IMG/VR virus record: IMGVR_UViG_3300033148_002693
Location: 34,717-98,716 of that record
Direction: 5' to 3' (one strand)
DNA from: a virus
DNA length: 64,000 bases
Part shown: positions 25,856 through 50,723 of the stretch, one piece after another
Position numbering within the stretch: the first letter of the stretch is position 1
Layout of the letters: each line of letters opens with the position of its first letter
The notes under the pieces: generated by a model
What the model saw: the letters and a program-made list of their open reading frames with translations, nothing else
Told to the model about the DNA's origin: nothing
Database searches by the model: none
Made by a program: the position numbers and the translations under genes

Positions 25856-25873
25856 TCCCCACCTCTCACAAAG

Positions 25874-25907
25874 AGACTGCTTGGTGAAAGCCAGGCGGTC
25901 TTTTTTT
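25874..25907 (+). terminator. Strong intrinsic terminator closing the late operon
   Basis: AGACTGCTTGG and CCAGGCGGTCT form an 11-base stem (two G-U pairs) around a 6-base loop, followed by seven T. It separates the late operon from the promoter-rich region on the right. Confidence 0.9.
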
Positions 25908-30252: not shown

Positions 30253-30720
30253 ATGAATGTCGTTGAGAAAGAAGTTGTAGAAGCGTATCAATTGCAGATG
30301 AGGGAAGTTGCGAATTGCAAGGCAGAGGTTGATAAATTGGAGTATCGATCTTCGCAACTTCGAAATAAGCTTGCAGAAGAGTGTATGGAATATCAATGGC
30401 TCATCGAAACCAATGAGGCCCTTGAGTTTGCAAGACAGAAGATGGCTGATGAGTTAGCGATAGCCAAAGACATTCGGGTGAATATCTTCAATCTGGACGG
30501 AGTGAAGGCGAAGATTATGGGTCTCGGTATCCGAGTTATGCGCCGGCTTGTGATGGACGAGAGGGAGGTGATCGAGTGGTGCAGACACAATGCTCCCCAG
30601 CATCTTGGCTTGAAATCATCGTTCAAGAAGGCTGCGTTGAAGTCTGATGAAGACGTTCGATGGGCTCCGTTTGGCATCGAAGAAGCCCCTGTCACAACGG
30701 TCGGGAAGGAGTGGAAATGA
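30253..30720 (+). CDS. Coiled-coil protein, possibly Gp157/Gam-like
   Basis: 155 residues. A long coiled coil (about 1-85) is followed by VIEWCRHNAPQHLG and FKKAALKSDED. A coiled coil followed by a short basic end is the layout of siphovirus Gp157 and Mu Gam-type DNA-end proteins, but key motifs are not clear. Located directly before a ParB-like gene. Confidence 0.45.
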   Translation: MNVVEKEVVEAYQLQMREVANCKAEVDKLEYRSSQLRNKLAEECMEYQWLIETNEALEFARQKMADELAIAKDIRVNIFNLDGVKAKIMGLGIRVMRRLVMDEREVIEWCRHNAPQHLGLKSSFKKAALKSDEDVRWAPFGIEEAPVTTVGKEWK

Positions 30721-31493
30721 CTGTTAAAGTGATACTGGAAGTTCCCCTAGAAGACATTATTCTTGGAGATAATCCCAGAGGTCGAGTTGGGAATACAACA
30801 GACCTTCAAGCGAGTATCAAAGAGCGCGGGTTGCTTCAACCGTTAACTGTACGCTCTGAGGGTGAAAAGTTTATGCTCCTAAGCGGGTACCGTCGCTTGA
30901 AGGCTGTCAAGGCGTTGGGATGGGAAACAGTGCCCATAGCCATCATCCCAGAATCAGATGAAGTCGATCTGGCGGATATGCTTGCGGCGAATCTGTACAA
31001 GGCTCCCGACTTACTATCAGAGGCGATGGCTGTTCGGGAATTGATGAAGAAAAAGGGCTGGTCAGTGAGTCGTGCGGGAAGGGTTATCGGCCGTAGCGTC
31101 AACGACATCAAGACTATGGCAGATTTGCTTGAGGCCGACGAATCTGTCCAGAACGCAGTTGTAGAGGGACGCATGTCGCTAACGGCGTTTCGAGCCATCT
31201 GCAAGGAAAGCAAGGAACGCCAAAGGGCAATTGTTGAAGATGCAAAGCCGCGAAATAAAGATGGAAAGTTGACTATCACTACGGTCAAGGCTGCCAGGGA
31301 CAAGGTACGGGGTCAAACGGAGAAGCGCATTGAGGGGCTTGACACTGATGGCCCTGTCCAGCTTCTAAACGCTGCTCTTGCTCTTGTGGGGTCTGTGAAG
31401 GGGCCATTCGACAGCACAATCGGCAATCGAGTCGAGCATGTACTTGACAAGATTATCAGTGAAGCTACAGCATTGAAAGGAGAATTGAAATGA
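30717..31493 (+). CDS. ParB/Spo0J-like nuclease-fold DNA-binding protein
   Basis: 258 residues from ATG 30717. EVPLEDIILGDNPRGRV, SIKERGLLQPLTVR, LLSGYRRLKAVKALGWETVP and LAANLYKAPDLL match the ParB N-terminal domain; the GYRRLKA box is the phosphate-binding arginine patch. An HTH follows (GWSVSRAGRVIGRSVNDIKT). No ParA is adjacent, so a role in plasmid-like partitioning or as a transcription factor or nuclease are both possible. Confidence 0.8.
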   Translation: MTVKVILEVPLEDIILGDNPRGRVGNTTDLQASIKERGLLQPLTVRSEGEKFMLLSGYRRLKAVKALGWETVPIAIIPESDEVDLADMLAANLYKAPDLLSEAMAVRELMKKKGWSVSRAGRVIGRSVNDIKTMADLLEADESVQNAVVEGRMSLTAFRAICKESKERQRAIVEDAKPRNKDGKLTITTVKAARDKVRGQTEKRIEGLDTDGPVQLLNAALALVGSVKGPFDSTIGNRVEHVLDKIISEATALKGELK

Positions 31494-34832: not shown

Positions 34833-34948
34833 CATAGTGCATGGGTTGAGCTTGATTCGACGTAATGAATCCGGTGCGCCTGCAATGTATCGGGCATAGG
34901 CACTGTAAGGGGTTAATATAGAATACACAATGATACTCATGCACTATG
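34833..34948. repeat. 116-bp inverted-repeat-bounded element, copy 1
   Basis: CATAGTGCATGGGT at one end pairs with ACTCATGCACTATG at the other (one G-U). The inside is nearly identical to copy 2 at 35306 (about 75 bases almost unchanged, including GATTC and GAATC arms). Either a MITE-like element or a structured RNA. Confidence 0.75.
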
Positions 34949-34968
34949 CAACACAGGGAGGTTAGGCA

Positions 34969-35305: not shown

Positions 35306-35420
35306 CATAGTGCATGGGTTGAGCTTGATTCGACGTAATGAATCCGGTGCACCTGCAATGTATCGGGCATAGGCACTGTATAGGTTAATATGGGATACCC
35401 AATGATACCCATGCACTATG
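35306..35420. repeat. 115-bp inverted-repeat-bounded element, copy 2
   Basis: CATAGTGCATGGGT and ACCCATGCACTATG are fully complementary (14 bp). Same orientation as copy 1, 473 bases apart start to start. It ends only 6 bases before the tRNA-like sequence. Confidence 0.75.
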
Positions 35421-35426
35421 TAATAT

Positions 35427-35499
35427 GGCTGGTGTAGCTCATTGGGGTGATAGAGCACCGCTTTGCGGAGGTAGTGGGTTCGACTCTCACCATCAGCCA
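35427..35499 (+). tRNA. tRNA-like sequence lacking a normal anticodon arm
   Basis: 73 bases. An 8-base acceptor stem (GGCTGGTG with CATCAGCC, one G-U), TA, D stem GCTC/GAGC with GG in the loop, and T arm GTGGG-TTCGACT-CTCAC are all present. Between A26 and the variable region there are only 11 bases (CCGCTTTGCGG), which fold as a 4-bp stem with a 3-base loop, not the 17-base arm. Compared with an Ala(TGC)-type arm it lacks about 6 bases. It is likely a tRNA pseudogene or a tRNA mimic. Confidence 0.6.
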
Positions 35500-35516: not shown

Positions 35517-36023
35517 ATGATGTGGTATAGCAATCGCACGATGATCGTCAAGGAAGACTTGGAACCTATCGAATGGCATGGTATGCCAGGGATGGAGCCA
35601 CGTATTGGTGATAGGGTAGTCTCTGACGCAATCATTCATTTTGGAAAGAGCAAAGACCAATACCTGAGTCAGCAGAATTCCCATTGGCTATCGTTCGTGT
35701 TTAGGAGTCAATCAAGACCAGGGTGGCAGCTTCAGTTGATTTGGGATATGGGGATGGCCTTGCTGTCCAGAGAACGAGTGAAAAAGGGAAGTCAGAGCGA
35801 TCCTTTATTAAATCTGTGGTGTTCGCTACGAAGGCAGAATTACGATCCTGGGATGATATGGGCCAGCATTGAAATTTGGACGGAAGAAGAGATGAACGAG
35901 GTTGTTCAAGACTTGATAGATAAATACGCAAGGCGTGTGCATCCATATGTTATACGTTCACCTTTGGGCGAACATGCTCAGGATGCCGTAGACATGGAAG
36001 CGCAAATGTTTGATGAATTCTAA
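35517..36023 (+). CDS. Hypothetical 168-residue protein
   Basis: ATG 35517 after TGGAGGGTG (earlier ATG 35505 possible). Mixed fold with an acidic helical C-terminal third (AQDAVDMEAQMFDEF). Begins 17 bases after the tRNA-like sequence. Not recognised. Confidence 0.55.
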   Translation: MMWYSNRTMIVKEDLEPIEWHGMPGMEPRIGDRVVSDAIIHFGKSKDQYLSQQNSHWLSFVFRSQSRPGWQLQLIWDMGMALLSRERVKKGSQSDPLLNLWCSLRRQNYDPGMIWASIEIWTEEEMNEVVQDLIDKYARRVHPYVIRSPLGEHAQDAVDMEAQMFDEF

Positions 36024-36059
36024 GAGGCCAGCCCGTAGACTGACCTCTCAGATAGAAGA

Positions 36060-36443
36060 GTGGAAGTGGCAGATTCATTATATCACACGGAATTGGAAAA
36101 GTCAAGCGATTCAGGAATGATTTCTAACACGGCTCTCTATATTGCTTTGATTTCTGGAAACAGGATTGATCCTGTGACTTGGAAAATCGAGCATGGTCGA
36201 TTGACTATTGTTGCCACCTCTTTACCATTAGACAAACTCTATCGTTGGCGTTGTTGTATATCCTATGATGGCAAGCTGGTATTGCGCGCTCTCAAAACTG
36301 CTGATGGGAGGTATGATCTGAAATGGTACAATGATGGAGATTGGGTAGAAGAGTTGGAAAATCTGCGGTTGCATGTGCTTGACAAGCTAGTGCGGCGCGC
36401 ACCGAAAGGAGGTGAGAATAGTGAACGCAAAACAACATCATGA
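36060..36443 (+). CDS. Hypothetical 127-residue protein
   Basis: GTG 36060, or ATG 36117. Strand-rich middle (LTIVATSLPLDKLYRWRCCISY, DGKLVLRALKTADGRYDLKWY). Basic C-terminus. It overlaps the next gene. Unknown. Confidence 0.5.
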   Translation: MEVADSLYHTELEKSSDSGMISNTALYIALISGNRIDPVTWKIEHGRLTIVATSLPLDKLYRWRCCISYDGKLVLRALKTADGRYDLKWYNDGDWVEELENLRLHVLDKLVRRAPKGGENSERKTTS

Positions 36444-36816
36444 GATGATGAACTACGACCGAAAGGAATTGCGGCGTGAAATCAAAGAGACACTATCCGT
36501 TTTGGTCAAGAGTGCAGACGGTTCGTCTCGTTGGGTATCTTTCAGGGACCCTGTGGTTGATTCTAAGGGCAAAGGGAATCAAACAGTGATGGTCGCCCGT
36601 GCGCTTGTCAATGGTCAACATCATTTCGCCAGGGTTCAAGTGAAGTGTGGACCTGGGGATGAATGGAGCGATACAGTTGCATATGAATTGCTCCTTGAGC
36701 GAGCCATCGTCGAGATCATCAATCAGGTCATGGACAGGATTGCCTGGGAAGATAGTCGCTATTTCATTAAGAGTAGCATGTGGGAAATACTGTTCGGGAG
36801 GCTACTGAGAGAATGA
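36421..36816 (+). CDS. Hypothetical 131-residue protein
   Basis: GTG 36421 follows AAAGGAGGTGAGAATA. Begins KQHHEMMNYDRKELRREIKETL, then strands (VMVARALVNGQHHFARVQVK) and a helix. Overlaps the next peptide (ATGA). Unknown. Confidence 0.55.
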   Translation: MNAKQHHEMMNYDRKELRREIKETLSVLVKSADGSSRWVSFRDPVVDSKGKGNQTVMVARALVNGQHHFARVQVKCGPGDEWSDTVAYELLLERAIVEIINQVMDRIAWEDSRYFIKSSMWEILFGRLLRE

Positions 36817-36887
36817 AAGTAGCAAGGTGTCCTAAGTGCAAGAGGCCCCTTGACAAAGATGGTCATTGTCCGAGAGGTTGTGTGTAG
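36813..36887 (+). CDS. 24-residue zinc-knuckle peptide
   Basis: MKVARCPKCKRPLDKDGHC then PRGCV: two CxxC-type pairs. Start overlaps the upstream stop. Very small; could be a leader peptide for the structured region that follows. Confidence 0.4.
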   Translation: MKVARCPKCKRPLDKDGHCPRGCV

Positions 36888-36889
36888 AT

Positions 36890-37100
36890 TTGTGCCAGCG
36901 CAGCGCCATTCTGGTGAGGTTTCGGAAAGCTGAAACTAAGAGGAGAAATCCGAGGTGCAAATCCTCCCGCTGGCATTGATATGGATCGTCGTGAGACGAC
37001 TTAACCGTACGCCAGGAGCGGTATAGCAAGTATCCGGGACGCCGAAGACTGATGGGGTGCGTGGAAAATCAGGCGGCACGGCTCAGAGAATAGTGTCGAG
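36890..37100 (+). ncRNA. Structured RNA candidate, with cobalamin-riboswitch-like or tRNA-like features
   Basis: TGCCAGCG pairs perfectly with CGCTGGCA across about 80 bases. Within it are GTTTC/GAAAC, GGA-GAAA-TCC and GAGG-TGCAAAT-CCTC hairpins; further on, TCGTC-GTGA-GACGA has a GNRA loop. GGTGCAAATCC and CGCCAGGAG recall conserved parts of cobalamin riboswitches, while the closed clover-like arms recall a tRNA; neither fit is complete (no U-turn anticodon loop, no full B12 box). Lies before the J-domain gene. Confidence 0.35.
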
Positions 37101-37149
37101 GCTCATCGGTAAACATCAGAGATTAAAGCCAACGCATGAAAGGAAACCA

Positions 37150-37665
37150 ATGAAGCGGAGATTCACAGCACAAGCATCCACAATTCAAAGAGACCTGATG
37201 AACGTGGTACGGAAGATGGGGACGACAAGCTTGCACGTCACCCAAGACATTTTCAGTGGCAAAGCTGAGATCGTATTCGACCGCGATGGTCAGAGGTACA
37301 TATTTCGATGCGACAGGTATCAAGATGCCCTTGACAATATGAGGGCCGCACAATTGACTATAACGTACCTGTGGCGCGCCTTGGAAGAGTATGGCGTTCA
37401 AAGTGAAACCGAGGATTTTGGGCAGTTGTTCTCTCAGTTCTTTCTTGGGTTCTCGGTTATGCCAGATGATTCGACTTTGCTATTGTCAGATGGATCACAG
37501 GAATGGCATGAGGTTCTTGGTATAGAACCAGATGCAGAAAAGGTAGCGATCATCAATGCGTACAGGGCTTTGGCAAGGATATACCACCCCGATGCTGGTG
37601 GGGACCCCGCGATGTTCAGGCGACTTAGGGAAGCATACGAAGAGGGAATGGAGCAATGGAACTGA
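37150..37665 (+). CDS. J-domain (DnaJ-like) co-chaperone
   Basis: 171 residues from ATG 37150 (GAAAGGAAACC). C-terminal J domain: WHEVLGIEPDAEK, AYRALARIYHPDAGGDPAMFRRLREAYEEG, with the essential HPD and a helix III/IV pattern. The N-terminal 110 residues are a separate domain, strand then helices. The J domain recruits host DnaK; the N-terminal part would choose the target. It overlaps the next gene by 10 bases. Confidence 0.8.
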   Translation: MKRRFTAQASTIQRDLMNVVRKMGTTSLHVTQDIFSGKAEIVFDRDGQRYIFRCDRYQDALDNMRAAQLTITYLWRALEEYGVQSETEDFGQLFSQFFLGFSVMPDDSTLLLSDGSQEWHEVLGIEPDAEKVAIINAYRALARIYHPDAGGDPAMFRRLREAYEEGMEQWN

Positions 37666-38024
37666 GAAAGGCAGCACAAGCGGTAGTCGATGCGTGTCAG
37701 TTGCCGGCTGGATTCAGGCATAAAGGTTACTTTCCAACCGACTCCGGGATAAAACTAGAGTACTACGTGAGCAAAGAGATTGTAGATGCTCTGCGTGATG
37801 TGCTGGAGAAAACCGGATGGACTAAGACTAAAGATAGATTACCTTCTGTCCCTAAGATGCTTGCGTTTGTCGTGTACCAAATGAAACAAAACGAGTATTA
37901 CGTTGTGTTGGTACAATGGAAAGATGGTACGTGGTGGTGGAGTTCTGAACTACAGATGAGAAGGGAAGTTTTGTACTGGCAACCATTGTACTATCCTGAA
38001 TTGCCGGAGATAAGCAATGAATGA
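37656..38024 (+). CDS. DUF551-like protein, paralogue 1
   Basis: 122 residues. After a helical start, GWTKTKDRLPSVPKMLAF, YYVVLVQWKDGTWWW and VLYWQPLYYPELPE follow the 'W..v.d.LP ... W.P.P..P' pattern of DUF551, common in phages and of unknown role. Two relatives sit at 38017 and 62348. Confidence 0.65.
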   Translation: MELRKAAQAVVDACQLPAGFRHKGYFPTDSGIKLEYYVSKEIVDALRDVLEKTGWTKTKDRLPSVPKMLAFVVYQMKQNEYYVVLVQWKDGTWWWSSELQMRREVLYWQPLYYPELPEISNE

Positions 38025-38493
38025 ATTGAAAGTGACAGCAGAAGCATTACTTGAATTGTTGGAGCGCGACTTCGGCTATAATGAAGAGGCACGCAAAACA
38101 GCATTGGAAATTAATGATATGGCTGAACCCTGGGACAGTATGAATGCACTACGCCTAGCATTGGCAAGGTTTGAGTGGATTAGCGTTGATGATGACTTGC
38201 CCAAAATTCCAGGTATGATGACATTCGTTGCATACAAGTCGGGCTGGATTGCAGGCAATGTGTACAACGTAGTGTTAGCACGATGGAAAGAGGGCAAGTG
38301 GTGGTGGAATTCTAGTCAACCAATAACAGTAAGGATTCTGTATTGGCAACCAGTGTATTGGCCCGATCCACCTGAGATTGAAAAAGGAGGTATGGCTATT
38401 TTTGGCGGGAAGCCGCCATTAGTCGGCTGGCCTCACACATCTTGTCGCGATGGCGGCTTCTATGTAAATTGGAAACGGAAATTTGACATTTAA
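38017..38493 (+). CDS. DUF551-like protein, paralogue 2
   Basis: 158 residues; WISVDDDLPKIPGMMTFVAY, NVVLARWKEGKWWWNSS, VLYWQPVYWPDPPEIEK-like order matches the upstream paralogue. It begins MNELKV, as does a fragment at 42451. A C-terminal extension (GWPHTSCRDGGFYVNWKRK) is extra. It overlaps its neighbour by 8 bases. Confidence 0.65.
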   Translation: MNELKVTAEALLELLERDFGYNEEARKTALEINDMAEPWDSMNALRLALARFEWISVDDDLPKIPGMMTFVAYKSGWIAGNVYNVVLARWKEGKWWWNSSQPITVRILYWQPVYWPDPPEIEKGGMAIFGGKPPLVGWPHTSCRDGGFYVNWKRKFDI

Positions 38494-38511
38494 TAACTTA
38501 TATGTTATAAT
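38483..38511 (+). promoter_or_regulatory. Consensus sigma-70 promoter for the ncRNA
   Basis: TTGACA, 17-base spacer, TATAAT; the -35 overlaps the end of the DUF551 gene. Transcript start is expected near 38518, at the first RNA stem. Confidence 0.88.
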
Positions 38512-38512
38512 A

Positions 38513-38690
38513 GGATCATAAGAGGCCCATAGGGGGGCAACCGATGATCCGCTTGGCAAACGGGGAGGATGTAGATGAGGACAGGCAAGCAAAAAGTCTC
38601 ACTCATGTGGGCTGATCGGCCCTTTGCCTTTGCCAGAGGCAAAAGTCTTGCCTGTCAGCCGTATCAGCTCACATGAATGAGGCTTTTTGT
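38513..38690 (+). ncRNA. Orphan structured RNA with pseudoknot and terminator
   Basis: No ORF of its own. P1: GGATCAT (38513) with ATGATCC (38544). P2: GACAGGCAAG (38580-38589) with CTTGCCTGTC (38647-38656). P3: 38596-38616 with 38663-38683, 20 of 21 positions paired (two G-U), followed by TTTTTG. P2 and P3 interleave, so they form a pseudoknot or act as alternatives. A hairpin TTTGCCT/AGGCAAA lies inside. A promoter upstream and a terminator downstream mark a separate transcript of about 170-180 bases. Its role is unknown. Confidence 0.75.
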
Positions 38691-38703
38691 TTTACAGTAA
38701 AAC
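38689..38703. promoter_or_regulatory. Operator-like palindrome GTTTTACAGTAAAAC (site 3 of 4)
   Basis: Directly after the ncRNA terminator and 15 bases before the HNH start. Arms identical to site 4. Confidence 0.45.
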
Positions 38704-38717
38704 TAGAAAGGGTTTGT

Positions 38718-38963
38718 ATGTTTTTCAAACGTTGGCGAGTCAACAGACTCAAGAACCTCACATACGACAAATACCTCCAAACACGTCATTGGAGGCGTCT
38801 CCGCAATAAAGCACTCGAAAGAACATTGCATCGTTGCCAATTGTGCAATGGTAGAAATCGGCTTGAAGTCCATCATAGAACATACGAGAGGCTTGGCGAG
38901 GAGCGGTTGGAAGATTTGACCGTTCTATGCCACAAGTGCCACATACTGTATCATGGGAAATGA
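38718..38963 (+). CDS. Small HNH endonuclease
   Basis: 81 residues from ATG 38718. YLQTRHWRRLRNKALERTLHRCQLCNGRNRLEVHHRTYERLGEERLEDLTVLCHKCH contains the CxxC, HH and CxxC core of terS/terL-associated HNH enzymes. The basic N-terminus is for DNA contact. Confidence 0.82.
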   Translation: MFFKRWRVNRLKNLTYDKYLQTRHWRRLRNKALERTLHRCQLCNGRNRLEVHHRTYERLGEERLEDLTVLCHKCHILYHGK

Positions 38964-38967
38964 GTTT

Positions 38968-38996
38968 TTGACAAACATAAATTATTATTGTATAAT
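38968..38996 (+). promoter_or_regulatory. Consensus sigma-70 promoter
   Basis: TTGACA, 17-base spacer, TATAAT. Drives the RHH peptide and the replication gene. Confidence 0.88.
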
Positions 38997-39017
38997 TACA
39001 ACACAAGGGATAAGGAA

Positions 39018-39161
39018 ATGGAACATACGACAATCAAGATTTGGGTTACTACAAGACGCAAGCTCAAACTTTTGGCCGCGCTCAGAGATAAGGCGATGGT
39101 TAAAATCCTGGATGAGTTGATTGATGAGGCAATGGCGAAGGAAAAGAAACAGAATAAATAG
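39018..39161 (+). CDS. 47-residue ribbon-helix-helix-like protein
   Basis: MEHTTIKIWVTTRRKLKLLAALRD then helix: short strand followed by two helices. Resembles the RHH peptide before the first tnpB. Likely a transcription regulator of the replication gene behind it. Confidence 0.6.
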   Translation: MEHTTIKIWVTTRRKLKLLAALRDKAMVKILDELIDEAMAKEKKQNK

Positions 39162-39173
39162 CTAGGAGTCATT

Positions 39174-40358
39174 ATGGATCAGTCAGTCATTGATGCTATA
39201 CTCAGCGAAGAAATTGTAGCTTATCGCTCTATTCTTGGAAGGGCTTTGAAGGGAGCAACAACCGCTTTACTTTTAAGTCAATTGCTTTACATGCGAAGAT
39301 ATTTTGGTGGAGATGATGGATGGTTCTACGTCACACAGGAAAGGCTTCAATATAAAACAGGGCTTACACGTTACGAGCAAAGCACCGCTAGACGAAATCT
39401 AAAAGACGCTGGCGTAATGACTGAGAAGCGAGCCGGTGTCCCATGTAGATTGTGGTATAAATTGAATGATAAAGCTATTGCCGACTTGGTAGTTGAACAA
39501 GCTAGAATCGACAAAGAGCTACAATCTAGTTTGCTGGAAACCCACAAACTAGATAGCGGAAAATCCACGAACAAGACAAAGGGTTTATCGCGAACAATTA
39601 ATAGTAATAAAAAAGAAGAAATAAAAAGTAAAAAGAATCCCCCCACAATCACAACTGAAGAAACTGTTTCGGATATTGCTGAGAGTAATCTTGTTGGTGA
39701 TCCTTTAGCAGATATTGCGTCAGCTAACGCTGCTATGGGCATCAAGCAAGACAATATCAGAGGGAGACATAGAACCGTTAAGGAGATACGAGAGAGTGTA
39801 GCTAAGGCCATTCTTGGTGGGGCTGAACCGGAAAACGAATCTCCTGCCGCTATTCGTAAAGGAGTCAAGAATTGGTTGCTTGGCGGGTATGGGGAATTGT
39901 TTTGTAACTTGAACGGTTCTTCGCAACCTGATTCTGTTATCAATGGTTGGGTAGGGACGGGTGTTGAGATTGTGAAGGCGGCCAAGTTCCATACTAAGAC
40001 CTGGGCTGAGGCATATTCATTGGTAGAAGAAGCTACGATGGCATTGTTCACTTGTGAAGATGAGATATTGAACCCGATGGCATGGCTTGTGAAAAACAAG
40101 GATAAGGCAGTTACGTTCACTGGATTGTCTGGGGCAAGGGTTCGGCTAATAGACATGATTGGTCGTATAGCAGAGAACAGGGCAAAATTCAGCCAGTCGG
40201 TTGCGAAACGGGAGAGACCACCCAAAAAGAGCAGGGCGGAGGAATTGGCGAACACTACGTTCGGCCATAGGGTTGCGAAGCGGGAGGGCATACTTGATGA
40301 GGTGTTGAGGATTGAGAAGGAGGAAGCAACTGCTGACGGGAAGCGTATCAAACTATGA
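39174..40358 (+). CDS. Phage replication initiation-type protein with winged helix
   Basis: 394 residues. Residues about 20-110 (TTALLLSQLLYMRRYFGGDDGWFYVTQERLQYKTGL, then SARRNLKDAG) form the winged helix of phage DnaD/RepA-like initiators; a polar linker (NKKEEIKSKKNPP) leads to a helical C-terminal part with an arginine-rich end (ERPPKKSRAEELAN). Located just before the first IS607 element. It probably loads the helicase or primase on the origin. Confidence 0.65.
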   Translation: MDQSVIDAILSEEIVAYRSILGRALKGATTALLLSQLLYMRRYFGGDDGWFYVTQERLQYKTGLTRYEQSTARRNLKDAGVMTEKRAGVPCRLWYKLNDKAIADLVVEQARIDKELQSSLLETHKLDSGKSTNKTKGLSRTINSNKKEEIKSKKNPPTITTEETVSDIAESNLVGDPLADIASANAAMGIKQDNIRGRHRTVKEIRESVAKAILGGAEPENESPAAIRKGVKNWLLGGYGELFCNLNGSSQPDSVINGWVGTGVEIVKAAKFHTKTWAEAYSLVEEATMALFTCEDEILNPMAWLVKNKDKAVTFTGLSGARVRLIDMIGRIAENRAKFSQSVAKRERPPKKSRAEELANTTFGHRVAKREGILDEVLRIEKEEATADGKRIKL

Positions 40359-40376
40359 CAACCCGTACCAACGCAT

Positions 40377-40405
40377 TTGACGAGTTTCTAATTCTGTGCT
40401 ATACT
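40377..40405 (+). promoter_or_regulatory. Promoter of IS607 element A
   Basis: TTGACG, 17-base spacer, TATACT. Same spacing and -10 in element B. Confidence 0.75.
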
Positions 40406-40418
40406 TGGAGGTGAGAAA

Positions 40419-40601
40419 GTGAGGGTTCAAGAAGTGACCAAAGACTATGCAATCGTAGACGGCGAGAAAATCTATTTCGATCAGCCATTTGATGAGGAGC
40501 CCGACAAGGCTGACTTCGAGCAGTGGTTGCATCGGATAGAGGACTTGCTGGAAACGCTCTTTTATTCAAAGGCAACCGATGAAGCTGTATACGCAAGCTG
40601 A
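40419..40601 (+). CDS. Small IS607-associated protein A (60 aa)
   Basis: GTG 40419 after TGGAGGTGAG. YAIVDGEKIYFDQPFDEEPDK then FEQWL matches YVVVNGGRIEVDPPFESVPDK then YENWL in element B at the same relative position. It overlaps tnpA by 23 bases. I do not know this protein from published IS607 layouts. Confidence 0.65.
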   Translation: MRVQEVTKDYAIVDGEKIYFDQPFDEEPDKADFEQWLHRIEDLLETLFYSKATDEAVYAS

Positions 40602-41226
40602 AGCCGCCGAGAGATTCGGCCTTAGTCGCCGTTCCCTCATTCGCTACGAGGCAGACGGGCTGATAGAACCAGTACGTACCCCTGGTGGTCAGCGGCGTTA
40701 TCCTGAGTCTGAGCTTCTGCGGCTCTACGGGCTTGAGACGAAAACCAAGCCGGATGGCGATAGAGCGGGATTGTACAGCCGTGTTTCTACCCGCAAGCAA
40801 GCCGACTCAGGCAATCTTGACCGACAAACGCAGCGGCTAAAGGACTATGCTCAAGCTGCTGGCTTCGACACTGTTGAGGTATATGAGGAAATCGCCAGTG
40901 GCTTGAACGAAAACCGCCGTCAGTTGCGGAAGTTGCTGAAGACAATCATTGCGGGTAAGGTTAATGTCGTGGTCGTGGAGTACAAAGACCGCCTTGCCCG
41001 CTTCGGCTATGCTTATCTTGAGTTGTTCTGTGAGTCTCACGGGGCGCGGATCGTAGCCATTGAAGAAAAAGCGTCTGACGACGAGAATGAAGAATTGGTC
41101 AAGGATTTGATTTCTGTTGTGACAAGTTTTTCAGCGAGACTTTATGGGCGGCGTGGGGGCCGTAAAGCAAAGAAGGAACTTGAGGAACAGTTGCGTGGCG
41201 AAGGTAAAGAGAGCGCACAAAATTAG
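40579..41226 (+). CDS. tnpA: IS607 serine recombinase TnpA
   Basis: 215 residues. N-terminal MerR-type HTH (YTQAEAAERFGLSRRSLIRYEADGLI, then TPGGQRRY), then YSRVSTRKQ with the catalytic serine (S70), ASGLNENRRQ and EYKDRLARFG. Complete. It overlaps tnpB by 32 bases. Confidence 0.92.
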   Translation: MKLYTQAEAAERFGLSRRSLIRYEADGLIEPVRTPGGQRRYPESELLRLYGLETKTKPDGDRAGLYSRVSTRKQADSGNLDRQTQRLKDYAQAAGFDTVEVYEEIASGLNENRRQLRKLLKTIIAGKVNVVVVEYKDRLARFGYAYLELFCESHGARIVAIEEKASDDENEELVKDLISVVTSFSARLYGRRGGRKAKKELEEQLRGEGKESAQN

Positions 41227-42439
41227 ATTGAATCCTACCACAGAGCAGGCGCAATGGTTGCTCCGGGCTTGCGGTGTGGCTAGGTTTTGTTACAACTGGG
41301 GACTCGAAAGATGGCGCGAGCAATACGAGGCCGGCGGGAAGCCGTCCGCCTATAAGCTCAAGAAGCAGTTCAACGCCATCAAGTCGGGGGAATATCCCTG
41401 GGTTTACGAGGTTGACAAGTGCGCTCAGGACACAGGGTTCCGCAATCTCGATATGGCCTTCAAGAACTTCTTTCGTCGGTGCAAGGGCGGTGATGCTAAG
41501 AAGGGCTATCCCCGCTTCAAATCTCGCAAGCATAGCAAGTTGTCATATCGGATAGATGGTTGTCGTGTTAGGTTAGACGGTCACTGGATCAAACTTCCCA
41601 AGTTGGACAAACCAATCAACATGACCGAGACCTTGCGATTTGACGGCGAAGTCAAATCGGTCACGATCTCCAAAGATGGTAAGCATTGGTATGCGGCAAT
41701 CAATGTAGAAGTCGAACCGCCAGAGCACGAGCATCTGCAAGGATCGGTTGGGATAGATTTGGGTATAAAGACGTTAGCTGTTCTCTCGGATGGCATACAG
41801 TATGAGAATCAAAGACTGCTACGCTCAGAACTGGGAAAGCTAAAGCGTCTGAACCGTGAGTTATCTCGTCGATCACAGGGCAGTAATCGCTGGAAGCGCA
41901 CCAAAGCAAAGCTGGCAAGATTGCACCGACGCATAGCCAATCGCCGATCAGACTACCAGCACAAGATGACGACAAAGATCGCTAGTACATACCGAGTTGT
42001 TGGCATTGAAGATTTGAACGTGGCGGGGATGCTCAGGAATCATCGTCTGGCCCTGTCTATCAGCGATGCGGGGTTTGGAGAAATTCGTCGCCAGCTATTA
42101 TACAAGAGCAAATGGTATGGTGGCGAGTTGGTGGAGATTGACCGCTTTTTTCCATCTAGTAAGCTCTGTCGGTTTTGCGGTTGCATCAATGATGGCTTAA
42201 CGCTGGCAGATCGGGAATGGGCTTGCGACTGTGGTGCTGTATTAGACCGGGATCGAAACGCGGCTATCAATATCGAAATGAAAGCACTGAGAATTTTGGG
42301 CCGGAGTGGGTTCACGGACCAAGTAAAAAACGGACGTGGACAGAATGTCAGACCCTTCGGGGCAGTTCTGAATGAAACGTCAAAAATGGTCGAGGAAAGG
42401 CGACCGTCCAAGCCGTGTCAGTTTGGCACAATTTGGTAA
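41195..42439 (+). CDS. tnpB: IS607 TnpB nuclease A
   Basis: 414 residues from GTG 41195 (AGGAACAG upstream); a longer frame from 41144 overlaps tnpA more. RuvC D188 (GIDLGIKTLA), E272 (GIEDLNV) and D353 (DRDRNAAINI) are present; zinc site C325, C328, C344, C346. By family knowledge it is an RNA-guided nuclease that also helps retain the element. The guide RNA would end at the right end and read into 42445 onward. Confidence 0.9.
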   Translation: MAKVKRAHKIRLNPTTEQAQWLLRACGVARFCYNWGLERWREQYEAGGKPSAYKLKKQFNAIKSGEYPWVYEVDKCAQDTGFRNLDMAFKNFFRRCKGGDAKKGYPRFKSRKHSKLSYRIDGCRVRLDGHWIKLPKLDKPINMTETLRFDGEVKSVTISKDGKHWYAAINVEVEPPEHEHLQGSVGIDLGIKTLAVLSDGIQYENQRLLRSELGKLKRLNRELSRRSQGSNRWKRTKAKLARLHRRIANRRSDYQHKMTTKIASTYRVVGIEDLNVAGMLRNHRLALSISDAGFGEIRRQLLYKSKWYGGELVEIDRFFPSSKLCRFCGCINDGLTLADREWACDCGAVLDRDRNAAINIEMKALRILGRSGFTDQVKNGRGQNVRPFGAVLNETSKMVEERRPSKPCQFGTIW

Positions 42440-48804: not shown

Positions 48805-48990
48805 GTGGTGGTTAACGGTGGGCGAATTGAAGTTGATCCGCCATTTGAATCTGTACCAGACAAGCAAAATTATGAAAATTGGCTGAACGGGGTTATAACT
48901 GATGCTCTTACGGCAGTCAGAAGTCGAGCAGAAATACCGAATCTCCAAGACTACCTTGCACAGATGGATCGAGGATGGGGTTCTGACTAA
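48805..48990 (+). CDS. Small IS607-associated protein B (61 aa)
   Basis: The frame is open from 48769, but the promoter's transcript start falls near 48787, so GTG 48805 (after GGTGAG) is chosen. VVVNGGRIEVDPPFESVPDK and YENWL match the element A protein. Overlaps tnpA by 89 bases. Confidence 0.6.
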   Translation: MVVNGGRIEVDPPFESVPDKQNYENWLNGVITDALTAVRSRAEIPNLQDYLAQMDRGWGSD

Positions 48991-49510
48991 TCATCGCACG
49001 GTAGGCGGTCATAGGCGGTATGACAGCTCAGAGATCGAGCAACTTCTATCTATATCAAATGGCGTCAAAGTTACGGATGAAGATGTGGCGATCTACGCGA
49101 GGGTTAGTACACGGAAGCAAGCCGAAAATCTGACACGACAACACAAACGATTGACTGAAGCCTGTGGAGATCGCGGCTATTGCATTGTTCTTGATTGTTC
49201 TGAAATCGCTTCGGGCCTGAACGATAATCGTCGTCAGTTTTTCAAGATTATAGACGCAGCTTGCAAGGGCGAAGTCAAGCGAGTGGTAGTTGAGCATCGA
49301 GATAGATTAACCCGCTTTGGGTACAAGACAATAGAAAGGTTCCTCAACGGCGTAGGCTGTACTGTTGAGGTGCTCGAACAGAAAGAGGGTAGAGACGAAC
49401 ACAAAGAACTAGTTGAAGACATTCTGACTATCATCGTGAGCTTTAGTTCAAGAATCTATGGGAAGCGTGGCGGGCGCAAGCGCAAAGAGGTGAACGATGT
49501 TGGTGACTAA
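48902..49510 (+). CDS. tnpA: IS607 serine recombinase TnpA (element B)
   Basis: 202 residues. MerR-type HTH (KYRISKTTLHRWIEDGVL, TVGGHRRY), YARVSTRKQ with catalytic S69, ASGLNDNRRQ and EHRDRLTRFG. Complete. It overlaps tnpB by 14 bases. Confidence 0.92.
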   Translation: MLLRQSEVEQKYRISKTTLHRWIEDGVLTNHRTVGGHRRYDSSEIEQLLSISNGVKVTDEDVAIYARVSTRKQAENLTRQHKRLTEACGDRGYCIVLDCSEIASGLNDNRRQFFKIIDAACKGEVKRVVVEHRDRLTRFGYKTIERFLNGVGCTVEVLEQKEGRDEHKELVEDILTIIVSFSSRIYGKRGGRKRKEVNDVGD

Positions 49511-50723
49511 GGCTCACAAAATCCTCTTGGATGTTAGCCCTGAAACCGGGAAGCTCTTTATTTCTTGGTGTGGTGCTGCTCGATGGTCATACAATTACGG
49601 CCTTGAGCGGAAAAAGATCGAATATGAAGTTACGGGCAAAAGTCCTGGTAGTTATGCTTTGATGAAAGAGGTTGTGGCTCTCAAGAGAACCAATGAGCAC
49701 GCCTGGCTCAAAGAAGTACCGAAGAGTGTGCCTAGAATGGCCTTGATACAGCTTGAGACAGCCTACGCCAATTTCTTTAGGCGTGTGAAGGGCGATAATG
49801 CTAAGAAAGGATTCCCGCGATTCAAGTCAAAAAAGAGATCAAAGCTAGCTTTCCATCTGGAGACTGATACTATTGCCGTGAATGGCAACCGAGTGCGTAT
49901 TCCTAAAGTTGGCTGGCTCAAAATGCACCAAGTAATCAGATTTGAGGGCCGACTAGTTGACACAGTCTGTATCAGTCAAACGGCAGGTAGGTGGTATATC
50001 TCATTTTCCGTCGAGACCGAAGTTGCTGGCTCGGTCGAGAAACAAGAACGGGAAGCGGTCGGTGTAGATGTAGGCATAAAGCTTCTGGCAGTACTTAGCG
50101 ATGGAAAAAAATTTGATAATCCCAAAGCATTCTATCGTCTTGAGAAGCTACTTACCAGAGCACAGCGCCAAGTAAATCGCAAGCAGAAGGACAGTAAACG
50201 ATGGCAAAAGGCAAAGCTCAGGGTTCAACGTATCCATAAACGAATCGCTGATTTGCGAGCCAATGCTACTCACCACGTCTCGGCCTATGTCGCTTCGAAT
50301 TATGATGGCGTGGCGATAGAGGACTTGAATGTGCAAGGGATGAGCCGTAACCACTACTTGGCAAAATCTGTACTGGATGCAAACATGGCAGAGTTGCATC
50401 GGCAATTACTATACAAGATGGCCTGGGTAGGTGGTGAGGCTCGGCAGGTAGATCGCTTCTTTCCAAGTAGCAAGCTGTGTTCGGTCTGCGGTTATATCAA
50501 TGATGGACTTACTCTTACTGACAGAGAGTGGACGTGTGGTTGCGGCGCACATCACAACCGCGATGAGAATGCAGCGGTAAATCTCGCTAATAAATGTTTT
50601 GGGCCGGTGGTGGACGGTCCCTGTGCGTGGACGGTTAGGCGAAGTAATGCCCCGGATGAAACGCGAACTGAAATCATTTCAGATCGGGTGAAGAAAGGCG
50701 CCCTTCCGGGCTTGGCGATTTAG
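49497..50723 (+). CDS. tnpB: IS607 TnpB nuclease B
   Basis: 408 residues. RuvC D191 (GVDVGIKLLAVL), E275 (GVAIEDLNV) and D356 (NRDENAAVNL); zinc Cys 328, 331, 347 and 349. All key residues are intact, so probably active. The guide part of its RNA would read into the start of the downstream gene. Confidence 0.9.
   Translation: MLVTKAHKILLDVSPETGKLFISWCGAARWSYNYGLERKKIEYEVTGKSPGSYALMKEVVALKRTNEHAWLKEVPKSVPRMALIQLETAYANFFRRVKGDNAKKGFPRFKSKKRSKLAFHLETDTIAVNGNRVRIPKVGWLKMHQVIRFEGRLVDTVCISQTAGRWYISFSVETEVAGSVEKQEREAVGVDVGIKLLAVLSDGKKFDNPKAFYRLEKLLTRAQRQVNRKQKDSKRWQKAKLRVQRIHKRIADLRANATHHVSAYVASNYDGVAIEDLNVQGMSRNHYLAKSVLDANMAELHRQLLYKMAWVGGEARQVDRFFPSSKLCSVCGYINDGLTLTDREWTCGCGAHHNRDENAAVNLANKCFGPVVDGPCAWTVRRSNAPDETRTEIISDRVKKGALPGLAI

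What the first reader, a model, noticed from the sequence alone, without database searches (positions are those of the whole stretch)
38483..38703. Orphan non-coding RNA with its own promoter, pseudoknot and terminator
A consensus promoter (TTGACA-N17-TATAAT) is followed by about 175 bases without a gene. Three long complementary pairings can be read: P1 (7 bp), P2 (10 bp, perfect) and P3 (20 of 21 positions paired), which ends in a T-run. P2 and P3 interleave, so either a pseudoknot forms or the two compete as an antiterminator/terminator switch. A palindrome matching three other sites follows directly. I know no RNA family with this order. Possible roles: regulatory sRNA, RNA decoy, or leader of the HNH gene.
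Basis: partly seen in the sequence, partly recalled or inferred. Interest (0 to 1): 0.85.

Follow-up and report, generated by a model that had tools for sequence, protein, structure and literature searches.

The report
Phage promoter, leader ORF and terminator
In an uncultured phage genome a consensus promoter drives a roughly 175-base transcript that ends at a very stable terminator just before an HNH nuclease gene; it looks more like a regulated mRNA leader carrying a 23-codon ORF than a new kind of non-coding RNA, and no relative was found in the collections searched to prove either.

Summary
The sequence features are real. The promoter (38483-38511, 12/12 with extended -10), the 10-bp P2 and the long P3 stem (26 of 27 positions paired, then a T-rich tail) are all there. 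The stretch folds far better than shuffles (z -4.5), and P3 is one of only three convincing + strand terminators found in the 98.7-kb phage record.

Two parts of the reading fail. The 5' arm of P1 (38513-38519) lies between the -10 and the likely +1 (38518), so P1 is probably not in the RNA. The stretch is also not clearly gene-free: a 23-codon ORF at 38544-38615 starts 32 nt after the -10 behind a strong SD (-9.8 kcal/mol), with gene-like codon use.

P2 and P3 use different bases, but full P3 would leave no loop to span 27 bp, so they should exclude each other. Folding predicts that P2 forms first and P3 replaces it.

Best reading: an attenuator-like mRNA leader controlling read-through into the HNH gene, which has no visible promoter of its own (0.45). 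Rivals: a stand-alone sRNA, or a small-protein mRNA with its own terminator. No homologue was found in phages, plasmids or IMG/VR, so covariation could not be tested.

The parts
38483..38511 (+). sigma-70-type promoter TTGACA-17-TATAAT with extended -10; the -35 overlaps the last codons of gene 38017-38493
   Evidence: 12/12 match, TG before -10; likely +1 near 38518 by spacing (inference)
38513..38519 (+). 5' arm of the proposed P1; lies between -10 and likely +1, so probably not transcribed in full
   Evidence: sequence
38544..38615 (+). candidate leader ORF, 23 codons, MIRLANGEDVDEDRQAKSLTHVG
   Evidence: SD duplex -9.8 kcal/mol against a 1% background quantile of -7.4; codon score at the 72nd percentile of real gene segments, exceeded by 0.65% of off-frame segments; 32 nt after the -10, as in other units of this phage
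38575..38676 (+). second SD-led ORF, 33 codons; weaker case
   Evidence: SD -10.5 kcal/mol but codon score only at the 14th percentile of real genes; no phage relative
38580..38589 (+). P2 5' arm GACAGGCAAG
38647..38656 (+). P2 3' arm CTTGCCTGTC; candidate transient antiterminator pairing with 38580-38589
   Evidence: pair probability 0.93 when the 3' end is at 38656, 0.02 at 38676
38590..38616 (+). P3 5' arm of the long terminator stem
38663..38692 (+). P3 3' arm and T-rich tail (terminator)
38623..38643 (+). inner hairpin CTTTGCCT/AGGCAAAAG at the top of P3
38689..38703 (.). palindrome GTTTTACAGTAAAAC, one of five in the record; likely a protein-binding site in DNA
38718..38963 (+). small HNH endonuclease gene (81 aa) downstream of the terminator, weak SD, no promoter seen between terminator and start
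   Evidence: PHROG HNH families, Pfam HNH just under cut-off, SD -3.8 kcal/mol, promoter scan

Best explanation
The stretch 38483-38692 is a promoter-driven mRNA leader that ends at an intrinsic terminator in front of the HNH gene. Transcription starts near 38518. A 23-codon leader ORF (38544-38615) is translated. P2 pairs as soon as its 3' arm is made and, while it lasts, holds P3's 5' arm in its loop, so P3 cannot close fully. If P2 gives way, P3 forms and transcription stops near 38690; if P2 persists, or a ribosome on the leader ORF covers P3's 5' arm, polymerase reads through into the HNH gene. Shown: the promoter and terminator sequence, the pairings, the SD and codon signal of the ORF, and the predicted folding order. 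Inferred: translation of the ORF, the amount of read-through, and that it is regulated. The signal, if any, is unknown.
For: 12/12 promoter placed upstream of, not downstream of, the terminator; elsewhere in this phage (25872-25903, then promoter 26000) the order is terminator then promoter. No promoter-like site between terminator and HNH start in the scan, so HNH expression needs read-through or an unseen promoter. ORF1 has a strong SD, gene-like codon use and the spacing from the -10 seen at other units; shuffles of the stretch give one or more such SD-led ORFs in 5.6% and two in 0.4%. P2 forms at 3' end 38656 (probability 0.93) and is displaced by 38676; final energies -71.6 free against -58.1 kcal/mol with P2 forced.
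Against: One sequence only; no homologues, so no covariation or codon-conservation test. P2's predicted advantage is brief (it is already at 0.69 by 38660 and 0.24 by 38664) and the end state is strongly the terminator. Standard thermodynamic folding ignores kinetics, pseudoknots and ribosomes. A 23-codon ORF gives little codon statistics, and HNH itself scores as non-native in codon use. The HNH gene may simply be poorly expressed or read from upstream.
Confidence: 0.45

Rival explanations
1. A stand-alone short RNA of about 175 nt, made from its own promoter and ended by P3, acting in trans as sRNA, decoy or protein-binding RNA.
For: Promoter and terminator bracket the stretch; stable structure, z -4.47; RNA-related genes occur in the same phage, namely Ro60 with a candidate Y RNA.
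Against: SD-led ORF with gene-like codons in the 5' half; no antisense targets above chance within the record; no Rfam match, including Y RNA (YrlA) models; host targets could not be tested.
Confidence: 0.25
2. A tiny gene: the transcript is simply the mRNA of the 23-residue peptide with its own strong terminator, and P2 has no role. HNH is a passenger that is read weakly.
For: ORF1 spacing, SD and codon use; phages carry many very small genes (general knowledge).
Against: No relative of the peptide in phage records; does not explain P2, which is unusual at about 2% of shuffles, nor the lack of an HNH promoter.
Confidence: 0.17
3. An ordinary terminator that insulates the upstream operon from the HNH/replication genes; the promoter match and ORF are coincidence.
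For: Strong dyad plus T tract, also T-rich on the other strand; replication genes downstream have their own 12/12 promoter at 38968.
Against: A 12/12 extended -10 promoter 80 bp ahead of the stem is very unlikely by chance; all seven other strong promoters checked lead into transcription units.
Confidence: 0.08

Closest known systems
Leader-ORF transcription attenuators (trp-type; uORF leaders such as mdtU-mdtJI and speFL in E. coli, PMC7815308)
   Same: Promoter, short SD-led ORF, alternative pairings and premature termination ahead of the regulated gene.
   Different: mdtU and speFL are reported with Rho or structure-dependent effects and have conserved peptides; here the terminator is intrinsic, the antiterminator pairing does not share bases with the terminator, and neither peptide nor RNA has a known relative.
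RNA structures that hold back phage homing-endonuclease genes (recalled: T4 I-TevI hairpin; not tested here)
   Same: A strong RNA hairpin directly ahead of a phage nuclease gene, limiting its expression.
   Different: In T4 the hairpin hides the ribosome site; here the stem ends 29 nt before the start codon and carries a T tract, pointing to transcription termination.
Phage short promoter-terminator RNAs such as lambda oop (recalled)
   Same: Short terminated transcript next to replication genes.
   Different: oop is antisense to cII/O; this one runs in the direction of the replication gene and has no complementary target above chance.

Membership tests
Intrinsic-terminator transcription attenuator | promoter followed by intrinsic terminator ahead of the gene it controls | tested here: met
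Intrinsic-terminator transcription attenuator | alternative pairing mutually exclusive with the terminator | tested here: inconclusive
   P2 real and predicted to form first; exclusivity argued from loop length, not measured
Intrinsic-terminator transcription attenuator | regulated read-through in response to a signal | not testable with these tools
   needs RNA-seq or reporter data
Leader-peptide attenuator | translated short ORF overlapping the switch | tested here: inconclusive
   SD, codon use and spacing support it; translation not shown, no conserved peptide
Any Rfam 15 RNA family (riboswitches, HEARO, 6S, sRNAs) | match to the covariance model | tested here: not met
Y RNA / YrlA (Ro60 ligand) | match to YrlA model RF02553 and position next to the Ro60 gene | tested here: not met
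   no YrlA hit at E<=10; the Ro60 gene is at L004:9326-10807, about 64 kb away, with its own structured RNA upstream. A related phage does have a YrlA-like RNA there
Conserved pseudoknotted ncRNA | compensatory changes in P2 and P3 across homologues | not testable with these tools
   no homologue in phages, plasmids or IMG/VR, nor in the five Ro60-bearing virus records

The most novel reading that the evidence does not exclude
A new phage regulatory RNA in which a leader ORF, a transient pairing that shares no bases with the terminator, and a DNA palindrome at the stop site together time expression of an HNH nuclease; a second promoter-hairpin-palindrome-terminator unit in the same phage (L004:10796-10980) would be a sister element.
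Probability: 0.12. Interest if true: 0.6.

Novelty: new member of a known kind. Interest (0 to 1): 0.35.

Why it matters
If the attenuator reading holds, it would be a worked example of a phage timing an HNH nuclease by terminator read-through, with a topological rather than base-sharing switch. As it stands it is a well-formed but unproven leader in an orphan phage, and it shows that short SD-led ORFs should be checked before a promoter-terminator stretch is called non-coding.

Tried and rejected
Homologue searches without result: blastn in phages (one 33-nt hit at E 0.2) and plasmids; exact P3 19-mer and gapped P2 patterns in IMG/VR; neighbours' proteins in IMG/VR, where the HNH query gave two distant loci without the RNA; HNH in GTDB genomes. 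The one near-identical contig found (L006/L014, 99.8% over 10 kb) does not cover the locus. Y RNA idea rejected. Origin-of-replication idea: no iteron-like repeats found in 36000-41000 and no skew change in the window. Trans-acting antisense within the phage: not above chance. P1 rejected as an RNA helix by its position relative to +1. The 33-codon ORF was kept as a weaker alternative. Host assignment through TnpB was uninformative.

Full report
Setting. The window is bases 34717-98716 of a 98,716-base IMG/VR virus record, a tailed phage with terminase, tape-measure-size and replication genes. All genes near the finding run on the + strand. The stretch lies between a gene of unknown function (38017-38493) and a small HNH gene (38718-38963), followed by a candidate ribbon-helix-helix protein (39018-39161, weak match) and an O-like replication gene (39174-40358) behind a second 12/12 promoter at 38968.

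What is there. The promoter is a full consensus with extended -10. P2 is a perfect 10-bp complement and P3 pairs 26 of 27 positions. The RNA folds to -73.9 kcal/mol against -55.6 +/- 4.1 for shuffles, z -4.47. A uniform scan for stems of nine or more pairs with a T tract finds only three convincing + strand terminators in the three pieces of the record: L004:10949-10976, window 25872-25903 and this one, which is the longest (weaker candidates were set aside by eye). The T-rich tail and A-rich 5' base are typical of an intrinsic terminator (general knowledge).

What is not. With the -10 ending at 38511, the usual spacing puts +1 near 38518, so most of the P1 5' arm (38513-38519) would not be transcribed. 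ORF1 (38544-38615) has an SD duplex of -9.8 kcal/mol, when 1% of minus-strand ATGs reach -7.4. Its codon score is 4.21, higher than 72% of same-length pieces of real genes and exceeded by 0.65% of off-frame pieces. It starts 32 nt after the -10; the first SD-led starts of most other strong promoters in this phage are 18-35 nt away. A random minus-strand position has such an ORF 15-40 nt downstream 0.1% of the time, a random plus-strand position 2.3%. ORF2 (38575-38676) has an SD of -10.5 but ordinary codon use.

How P2 and P3 relate. P2's 5' arm ends at 38589 and P3's 5' arm starts at 38590. In a full pseudoknot a loop of 0 nt would have to cross 27 bp, which I judge impossible; a partial P3 would lack the base of the stem next to the T tract. 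So P2 and a working terminator should exclude each other although they use different bases. Stepwise folding agrees: P2 is the minimum-energy state when the 3' end is at 38656 (probability 0.93), falls to 0.24-0.69 over the next few bases, and is gone once the 3' arm of P3 reaches 38676; the final states are -71.6 (free) and -58.1 (P2 forced) kcal/mol. This makes P2 a possible transient antiterminator. These are equilibrium calculations without ribosomes or kinetics.

Function. A promoter placed ahead of a terminator, rather than behind it, means that the product is either a short RNA or a leader with conditional read-through. The HNH gene has a weak SD (-3.8) and no promoter-like site between terminator and start in the scan. 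With ORF1 in the leader, attenuation of HNH is the best-supported reading (0.45). A trans-acting RNA is not excluded, but complementarity to the rest of the record is not above chance (6 matches of 11 nt against a shuffled mean of 8.5). Host targets are untested because the host is unknown.

Relatives. None were found: phages and plasmids by blastn, IMG/VR by exact and gapped patterns and by neighbouring proteins, GTDB genomes by the HNH protein. The near-identical contig IMGVR_UViG_3300033149_001768 covers another part of the phage.

Verdict. Comparison with uORF leaders in E. coli rests on PMC7815308. It is most likely a new member of a known kind.

Noticed in passing
L004:8983-9300 and L004:9326-10807 (G000:C1, outside the window): The phage encodes a Ro60-type protein (TROVE plus vWA). 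Directly upstream, behind a promoter, is a structured region with three similar modules, the last holding a tRNA-like domain (Rfam tRNA 52.5 bits; ARAGORN tRNA-Tyr): a candidate phage Y RNA. A related phage (L015) has a YrlA-like RNA (44.3 bits, below the gathering score) in the same place.
   Followed up: partly
window 21990, 28600, 38689, 53623 and L004:10895: Five copies of the palindrome GTTTTACNGTAAAAC, at or just past gene ends, one directly abutting a promoter (53623/53639). Likely sites of a phage DNA-binding protein; the ParB-like protein (30660-31493) and the small RHH-like protein (39018-39161) are untested candidates.
   Followed up: partly
L004:10796-10980: A second promoter, hairpin, palindrome and terminator unit, sharing TTTTACMGTAAAACTAGAAA with the finding; the SD-led ORF is absent.
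   Followed up: partly
window 40579-42439 and 48902-50723: Two IS607-type elements (MerR-resolvase TnpA plus TnpB) in one phage genome.
   Followed up: no
window 34833-34951 and 35306-35423: A 119-bp repeat, 92% identical, the second copy directly before a tRNA-like sequence (Rfam 41 bits at 35428-35498; not called by ARAGORN).
   Followed up: no
L014:2378-2456 against L004:9198-9271: The only differences between the two near-identical phage contigs over 10 kb are small indels, one of 5 nt inside the tRNA-like domain of the candidate Y RNA.
   Followed up: no
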